Shown: one piece after another, positions 26,246 through 26,351 of the stretch | Layout of the letters: every line of letters begins with the position of its first letter | Numbering within the stretch: position 1 is the stretch's first letter | DNA from: a bacterium | GTDB lineage: Bacteria > SZUA-79 > Acidulodesulfobacterales > Acidulodesulfobacteraceae | DNA length: 35,071 nucleotides | Reading direction: 5' to 3' | Assembly: GCA_021798875.1 (NCBI GenBank) | Contig: JAJZBN010000021.1 | Coordinates: forward strand, 1-35,071 | Notes under the pieces: model-generated | What the model was told of the DNA's origin: nothing | What the model saw: only the letters and a program-made list of their open reading frames with translations | Databases searched by the model: none | Translations under genes and position numbers: made by a program

Positions 26246-26281
26246 AAGCGCAAATGGGCGCTTGCGGCAACGACGCCGCAA
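26246..26281 (+). promoter_or_regulatory. Tandem hairpins in the nifH leader (ANTAR-target-like)
   Basis: P1: AAGCGC (26246-26251) pairs with GCGCTT (26258-26263) around the six-base loop AAATGG. P2: TTGCGGC (26262-26268) pairs with GCCGCAA (26275-26281) around the six-base loop AACGAC. ANTAR-protein RNA targets are two adjacent hairpins with six-base loops bearing A at 1 and G at 4. P2 fits fully; P1 has A1 but U4. The P2 3' arm is also the 5' arm of the terminator that follows, so the two structures exclude each other. Confidence 0.7.
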
Positions 26282-26351
26282 TTAAAGAGGCTTAAACTGC
26301 TTAAAACTTTCGTTGAGTTTTTGTCTCCTTAGTTGCGGCGTTTTTGTTTTT
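26273..26351 (+). terminator. Intrinsic terminator in the nifH leader
   Basis: ACGCCGCAA (26273-26281) pairs with TTGCGGCGT (26333-26341). The stem continues inward to about 26291/26323 with one mismatch and two G-U pairs, and AAACT/AGTTT may pair further in. T-rich sequence follows. It lies between the sigma-54 start and the nifH ribosome site, so nif expression requires read-through; hairpin P2 (26262-26281) would prevent its folding. Confidence 0.85.

What the first reader, a model, noticed from the sequence alone, without database searches (positions are those of the whole stretch)
26246..26351. Two-hairpin/terminator switch in the nifH leader, ANTAR-like
Two adjacent six-base-loop hairpins are followed by a strong intrinsic terminator whose 5' arm (26275-26281) is the 3' arm of hairpin P2. 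P2's loop AACGAC has A1 and G4, the ANTAR recognition bases; P1's loop AAATGG keeps A1 only. In Geobacter, ANTAR-type antiterminators are reported to act on nif transcripts. Here a sigma-54 start would be combined with antitermination ahead of the whole nif operon.
Basis: partly seen in the sequence, partly recalled or inferred. Interest (0 to 1): 0.85.

Follow-up and report, generated by a model that had tools for sequence, protein, structure and literature searches.

The report
ANTAR-type antiterminator before nitrogenase operon
Ahead of the nitrogen-fixation genes of an uncultured acid-mine bacterium lies an RNA switch that by default stops transcription and is most likely held open by an RNA-binding regulator encoded further down the same gene cluster; the type of switch is known, but this one has an unusual first hairpin and sits inside a self-reinforcing circuit.

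Summary
At 26246-26279 two adjacent six-base-loop hairpins (P1, P2) are followed by an intrinsic terminator whose 5' arm contains the 3' arm of P2. The window belongs to a SZUA-79 (Ca. Acidulodesulfobacterales-type) genome. That genome has one ANTAR protein: a response regulator with intact receiver and ANTAR domains, in a nifX-ANTAR-nifI1-nifI2 cluster that relatives show to be the distal end of this nif operon. P1, P2 and the terminator show compensatory changes across 15 nifH leaders, and the shared arm covaries with both of its partners. One genus has the identical operon with the ANTAR gene precisely missing; its nifH leaders lack P1, P2 and the terminator but keep the sigma-54 site. The motif occurs once per genome. 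Differences from the published ANTAR target: P1 has U, never G, at loop position 4 (15/15); P2 position 1 is A or G; the linker is 0-3 nt; and the regulator gene lies behind its own terminator. ANTAR control of nif is already reported for Pelobacter and Geobacter, so this is a new variant of a known kind.

The parts
26125..26140 (+). sigma-54-type -24/-12 promoter site TGGCATGAATATTGCA
   Evidence: 11 of 11 consensus positions; GG-N10-GC kept in all 21 nifH leaders of the family, including those without the antiterminator
26246..26263 (+). hairpin P1, loop AAAUGG (26252-26257)
   Evidence: 15 of 15 leaders; two of its pairs change on both sides; A2 and U4 of the loop invariant
26264..26279 (+). 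hairpin P2 (antiterminator), loop AACGAC (26269-26274)
   Evidence: 15 of 15 leaders; two pairs change on both sides; loop consensus R-A-N-G-R-C, G4 invariant
26273..26349 (+). intrinsic terminator: arms 26273-26288 and 26326-26341, U-rich tract 26341-26349; 5' arm includes the 3' arm of P2
   Evidence: fold; 8 of 16 pairs change on both sides, 0 of 500 shuffles reach the score
26386..27246 (+). nifH, first gene of the operon
   Evidence: TIGR01287 over cut-off
27264..28187 (+). nifB-like radical SAM protein
   Evidence: TIGR01290 E 1e-101, just under its cut-off
28160..28939 (+). methyltransferase-like gene, conserved in the operon
   Evidence: Pfam methyltransferase domains; conserved order
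28986..29285 (+). ferredoxin-like gene
   Evidence: conserved between the methyltransferase and nifD in the full operons checked except G028; not scanned for domains, two 4Fe-4S-like cysteine motifs by eye
29363..30799 (+). nifD
   Evidence: TIGR01282 over cut-off
30898..32319 (+). nifK
   Evidence: TIGR01286 over cut-off
32375..33733 (+). nifE
   Evidence: TIGR01283 over cut-off
33826..35071 (+). nifN, cut by the contig end; in relatives followed by nifX, the ANTAR regulator, nifI1, nifI2 (here on contig C25, locus L002:8621-10148 minus strand)
   Evidence: TIGR01285 over cut-off; order from relatives; coordinates

Best explanation
The nifH leader is an ANTAR-type transcription attenuator. 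RNA polymerase starting at the sigma-54 site transcribes P1 and P2; if nothing holds P2, its 3' arm is taken into the much more stable terminator and transcription stops before nifH. The ANTAR response regulator encoded between nifX and nifI1 of the same operon, when activated (presumably phosphorylated at D61), binds the P1-P2 hexaloops, holds P2 closed long enough for polymerase to pass the U tract, and lets the whole nif operon, its own gene included, be transcribed (positive feedback). Shown by sequence: the mutually exclusive structures, their covariation, the regulator and its position, and the joint presence or absence. Inferred: binding, phosphorylation, direction of regulation, and the signal (probably nitrogen status).
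For: Mutually exclusive P2 and terminator. Compensatory changes in P1, P2 and the terminator, 0 of 500 shuffles reaching the covariation scores, with column 39 (G/A) followed by both its P2 partner (C/U) and its terminator partner (C/U). Exactly one ANTAR protein in the genome with receiver plus ANTAR domains; full-length match to EutV, 6wsh/6ww6; receiver residues D17, D18, D61, T88, K115 invariant; EutV's RNA contacts R142, K143, K147, K149, E160, M172, N173 kept as R153, K154, K158, K160, E171, M183, N184. Regulator gene at the distal end of the same operon. Motif and regulator present together in 13 genomes and absent together in 6 genomes of one genus whose operon is otherwise identical. 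One site per genome.
Against: P1 lacks the G4 that EutV requires in both loops (U4 in 15/15), and P2 position 1 is G in 5 of 15. The linker is 0-3 nt, whereas 3 nt failed in EutV (PMC3369931). EutV's Tyr164, which stacks on G4, is His here (Leu in G028), and R168, R175, R177 are replaced. No HisKA_2 kinase, one of the kinase types known to partner ANTAR regulators (general knowledge), was found in any of the 30 genomes, so the activating kinase is unknown. The presence/absence pattern rests on one or very few evolutionary events. No expression or binding data.
Confidence: 0.88

Rival explanations
1. Only P2 is an ANTAR site. P1 is not read by the ANTAR domain but is a structural or timing element (pausing, coaxial stacking on P2) or is bound by another factor.
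For: P1 never has G4; linker is near zero so the two helices can stack; P1 is conserved but with a different loop consensus.
Against: P1 is kept with covariation and a conserved hexaloop with invariant A2 and U4, and P1 is required in EutV, so recognition of P1 in a changed way is as likely.
Confidence: 0.3
2. A constitutive attenuator: the terminator merely lowers nif expression and the hairpins have no protein partner.
For: No functional data; the terminator is favoured over P1-P2 by about 8-21 kcal/mol in all leaders.
Against: A terminator alone gives no reason for P1, for hexaloops with invariant A2 and G4, for P2 covariation, or for joint absence with the ANTAR gene.
Confidence: 0.05
3. 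Another RNA-binding regulator acts on the leader, and the ANTAR protein acts elsewhere.
For: P1 departs from the ANTAR consensus; the kinase is unknown.
Against: The regulator gene sits in the operon and is present or absent with this leader only; no other copy of the motif exists in the genome.
Confidence: 0.06

Closest known systems
EutV/eutP and related ANTAR dual-hairpin antiterminators (Enterococcus faecalis; Ramesh et al. 2012, PMC3369931; Walshe et al. 2022, PMC8934654)
   Same: Two tandem hexaloop hairpins, P2 overlapping an intrinsic terminator, receiver-ANTAR regulator homologous over its full length, G4-contacting residues R142, K149, E160 and loop plug M172 conserved.
   Different: P1 has U4 instead of G4; purine rather than strict A at loop position 1; linker 0-3 nt rather than 5-12; Tyr164 replaced by His or Leu; operon is nif behind a sigma-54 site; regulator encoded in the operon behind its own terminator; no HisKA_2 kinase found.
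ANTAR-type nif regulation in Pelobacter carbinolicus (predicted, PMC3369931) and Geobacter GnfK/GnfR (gene names in PMC7962754; mechanism from general knowledge, Ueki and Lovley 2010, not held here)
   Same: ANTAR antitermination applied to nitrogenase transcripts; response regulator linked to nif.
   Different: Pelobacter has motifs in three transcriptional units, here one only. Whether its P1 loops carry G4 could not be checked: no Geobacter or Pelobacter sequence was obtained.
NasR/nasF and AmiR/amiE attenuators
   Same: Default termination relieved by an ANTAR protein on tandem hairpins.
   Different: One-component or differently sensed ANTAR proteins and other target operons (general knowledge, PMC3369931).

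Membership tests
ANTAR target RNA (dual hexaloop hairpin antiterminator) | two tandem short stems with six-base loops | tested here: met
ANTAR target RNA (dual hexaloop hairpin antiterminator) | A1 and G4 in the P2 loop | tested here: met
   met in the window; across relatives G4 15/15, position 1 A in 10 and G in 5
ANTAR target RNA (dual hexaloop hairpin antiterminator) | A1 and G4 in the P1 loop | tested here: not met
   A1 in 13/15, G4 in 0/15, U4 in 15/15
ANTAR target RNA (dual hexaloop hairpin antiterminator) | linker between P1 and P2 within the working range (5-12 nt in eut; 3 and 14 nt fail) | tested here: not met
   0 nt with full stems, 3 nt counting only the four-pair cores; range from PMC3369931
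ANTAR target RNA (dual hexaloop hairpin antiterminator) | P2 3' arm shared with an intrinsic terminator | tested here: met
ANTAR target RNA (dual hexaloop hairpin antiterminator) | ANTAR protein encoded in the genome | tested here: met
ANTAR target RNA (dual hexaloop hairpin antiterminator) | binding by the ANTAR protein raises read-through | not testable with these tools
   needs purified protein and transcription assay
ANTAR response regulator (EutV type) | receiver domain with phospho-acceptor plus C-terminal ANTAR domain | tested here: met
   PF00072 13-124, PF03861 144-197 over cut-off; D17, D18, D61, T88, K115 invariant
ANTAR response regulator (EutV type) | residues that contact the flipped G4 | tested here: inconclusive
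   R142, K149, E160 and M172 kept; Tyr164 is His or Leu
ANTAR response regulator (EutV type) | cognate histidine kinase of HisKA_2 type | tested here: not met
   no HisKA_2 domain in 30 genomes; other kinase types not tested

The most novel reading that the evidence does not exclude
In this phylum the ANTAR dimer reads an asymmetric target: G4 in P2 but an invariant U4 in P1, with the two hairpins abutting so that they can stack. P1 would then be a distinct recruitment hairpin rather than a second copy of the same site. The regulator sits at the far end of the operon it releases, giving a switch-like autocatalytic nif circuit with sigma-54 initiation as a second gate.
Probability: 0.4. Interest if true: 0.62.

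Novelty: new variant of a known kind. Interest (0 to 1): 0.52.

Why it matters
Why an ANTAR protein needs two hairpins when a dimer seems able to hold only one is an open question in the EutV literature (PMC8934654). A natural family in which P1 and P2 have diverged into two different invariant loops (U4 and G4) with almost no linker gives a direct way to test the proposed recruitment-hairpin model. It also extends ANTAR control of nitrogenase to an uncultured, iron- and sulfur-cycling acid-mine phylum. One genus there has lost (or never had) both the regulator gene and its RNA target while keeping the rest of the operon.

Tried and rejected
Rfam at gathering and at E up to 1: nothing relevant. 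A second motif copy in the own genome: none. Apparent exception G005 (ANTAR gene without motif): rejected, because its ANTAR contig is 98.5% identical to G012 of another genus, while G005's own complete nif operon lacks the gene. HisKA_2 partner kinase: none. Curated NifA: none over cut-off, many sigma-54 activators. Named Geobacter sequences: not reached by the one genome-contig scan or the plasmid search, and Ueki and Lovley 2010 is not held. Foreign nifH leaders: 23 of 24 lack a tandem hexaloop pair; G114 has one over a terminator. The Caenarcanales relative (40%) is an ordinary kinase-ANTAR pair without nif (kinase type judged by eye).

Full report
1. The observation. P1 (26246-26263) and P2 (26264-26279) are adjacent hairpins with six-base loops AAAUGG and AACGAC. 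The 3' arm of P2 is also the 5' arm of a long intrinsic terminator (26273-26288 with 26326-26341, then UUUUUGUUUUU). The full segment folds far better than shuffles (z -5.2), and P1-P2 alone fold at z -3.0. P2 and the terminator exclude each other, and the terminator is the more stable state in every leader examined, so termination is the default unless something holds P2.

2. Surroundings. The leader lies between a -24/-12 sigma-54-type site (26125-26140) and nifH (ATG at 26386). The operon runs nifH, nifB-like, a methyltransferase-like gene, a ferredoxin-like gene, nifD, nifK, nifE, nifN. nifN is cut by the contig end. Named relatives identify the lineage as SZUA-79, the group described as Candidatus Acidulodesulfobacterales from acid mine drainage (PMC6776010). 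That lineage name comes from the titles of the nearest named contigs and my own knowledge; the window's genome itself is unnamed.

3. The regulator. The own genome (2.5 Mb, 97% complete) has one ANTAR domain: a 202-residue protein with a receiver and an ANTAR domain, encoded at the end of contig C25 in the order nifX, ANTAR, nifI1, nifI2. In relatives with unbroken contigs the same cluster follows nifN directly, so the regulator is the tenth gene of the operon headed by this leader, 9-10 kb downstream. In the own genome this continuity is inferred, because C113 ends in nifN and C25 ends in nifX. The protein matches EutV (6wsh/6ww6) over its full length. Receiver residues D17, D18, D61, T88 and K115 are invariant. 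Of eleven RNA-contact residues listed for EutV, seven are kept (R142, K143, K147, K149, E160, M172, N173) and four are changed (Y164H, R168Q, R175G, R177P).

4. Conservation and covariation. Of 21 readable nifH leaders in the 30 genomes of the family (which is also all of the phylum that is held), 15 carry P1, P2 and the terminator, ungapped in the 42-nt core. P1 and P2 have 96.5% of cells paired and four pairs with changes on both sides; 0 of 500 shuffles reach the covariation score, and slid versions fail. The terminator has eight pairs with changes on both sides, again 0 of 500. Column 39 (G in some, A in others) is matched both by column 26 in P2 (C or U) and by its terminator partner (C or U), so the alternative pairing itself is conserved. 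One caution: the terminator arms were anchored on GGCG before the U tract, which leans the count towards that pairing, and the sequences are related.

5. Regulator and RNA travel together. In 13 genomes both motif and ANTAR gene are present, nine of them on one contig. In six genomes of one genus (G001, G002, G004, G005, G006, G007) the nifH leader has neither hairpins nor terminator; in the five of these whose operon was read (all but G007) the gene order is identical except that the ANTAR gene is missing between nifX and nifI1. The sigma-54 site is kept in all 21 leaders. G005 seemed an exception, but its ANTAR contig is 98.5% identical to G012 while its own nif operon lacks the gene, so that contig is almost certainly foreign to the bin. 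Two motif-bearing genomes (G009, G021) show no ANTAR gene; their assemblies are 78% and 90% complete, and G021's contig ends before the expected place. As counts, 13 against 6 without an off-diagonal case has probability 4e-5, but the six are one clade, sister to the motif-bearing G028 with full bootstrap support. The honest number of events is one, or a few. With midpoint rooting the simplest history is a single joint loss.

6. Specificity and chance. A model of P1-P2 finds the nifH leader at E 2e-15 in the own genome and nothing else below E 1. The other genomes have a single strong match each. A generic scan for the composite gave 28 hits in 3.67 Mb, all but one being this leader; the other lies beside an ANTAR gene in an unrelated genome and has textbook loops AGCGCC and AAAGAA with an 11-nt linker. 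Of 24 nifH leaders from other lineages, only G114 has a tandem pair over a terminator; that genome also has an ANTAR protein, next to a gene that reads like glutamine synthetase.

7. Mechanism. The best-supported account is ANTAR antitermination. The activated regulator holds P2 closed, the terminator cannot form, and the nif operon, including nifI1, nifI2 and the regulator gene, is transcribed. Because the regulator lies behind the terminator it controls, a little basal read-through would be amplified. Initiation at a sigma-54 promoter gives a second, independent gate. Binding, phosphorylation, the signal and the kinase are not shown; no HisKA_2 kinase was found in the family.

8. Known or new. 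The kind is known: ANTAR dual-hairpin antiterminators regulate nitrogen genes widely, and a nif regulon with three such leaders is predicted in Pelobacter carbinolicus (PMC3369931). Geobacter GnfR is reported as the nitrogen-fixation response regulator (PMC7962754; its antitermination role is from general knowledge). Measured against the defining features, two were tested and not met: G4 in the P1 loop (U4 in 15 of 15) and a linker of 5-12 nt (0-3 here). I therefore do not file it as a strict member of the published motif but as a variant that works like it. Whether nif leaders of Geobacter share the U4 could not be checked.

Noticed in passing
window 25786-25804, 25819-25837, 25917-25935 and 1458-1476: Interspersed repeat AAATAAATCTGACACCTTT, in direct and inverted copies between the homocitrate-synthase-like gene and the nif promoter; 127 copies (up to 1 mismatch) in the own genome, 0 for the reversed control. 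Looks like a REP or miniature-element family.
   Followed up: partly
L193 (G005 contig C145, 1-2301): A 3.1-kb contig with the nifX-ANTAR-nifI cluster, 98.5% identical to a genome of another genus, sits in a bin that has its own complete nif operon: likely mis-binned.
   Followed up: yes
L221 1387-1562 (G114), upstream of nifH: In an unrelated lineage the nifH leader also has two tandem hairpins (loops ATACAT and AGGGGT) whose second overlaps a terminator. The genome has one ANTAR protein (GAF-like by eye) next to a gene that reads like glutamine synthetase: a possible second nif ANTAR leader, again without G4 in P1.
   Followed up: partly
L179 (G198), reverse-complement positions about 3000-3140: Canonical ANTAR dual-hairpin leader (AGCGCC, AAAGAA, linker 11 nt, terminator) about 1 kb downstream of an ANTAR response-regulator gene, in a cluster with an ABC permease.
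   Followed up: partly
window 28160-28939: A methyltransferase-like gene is conserved after nifB in every SZUA-79 nif operon examined, including those without the ANTAR gene; role unknown.
   Followed up: no
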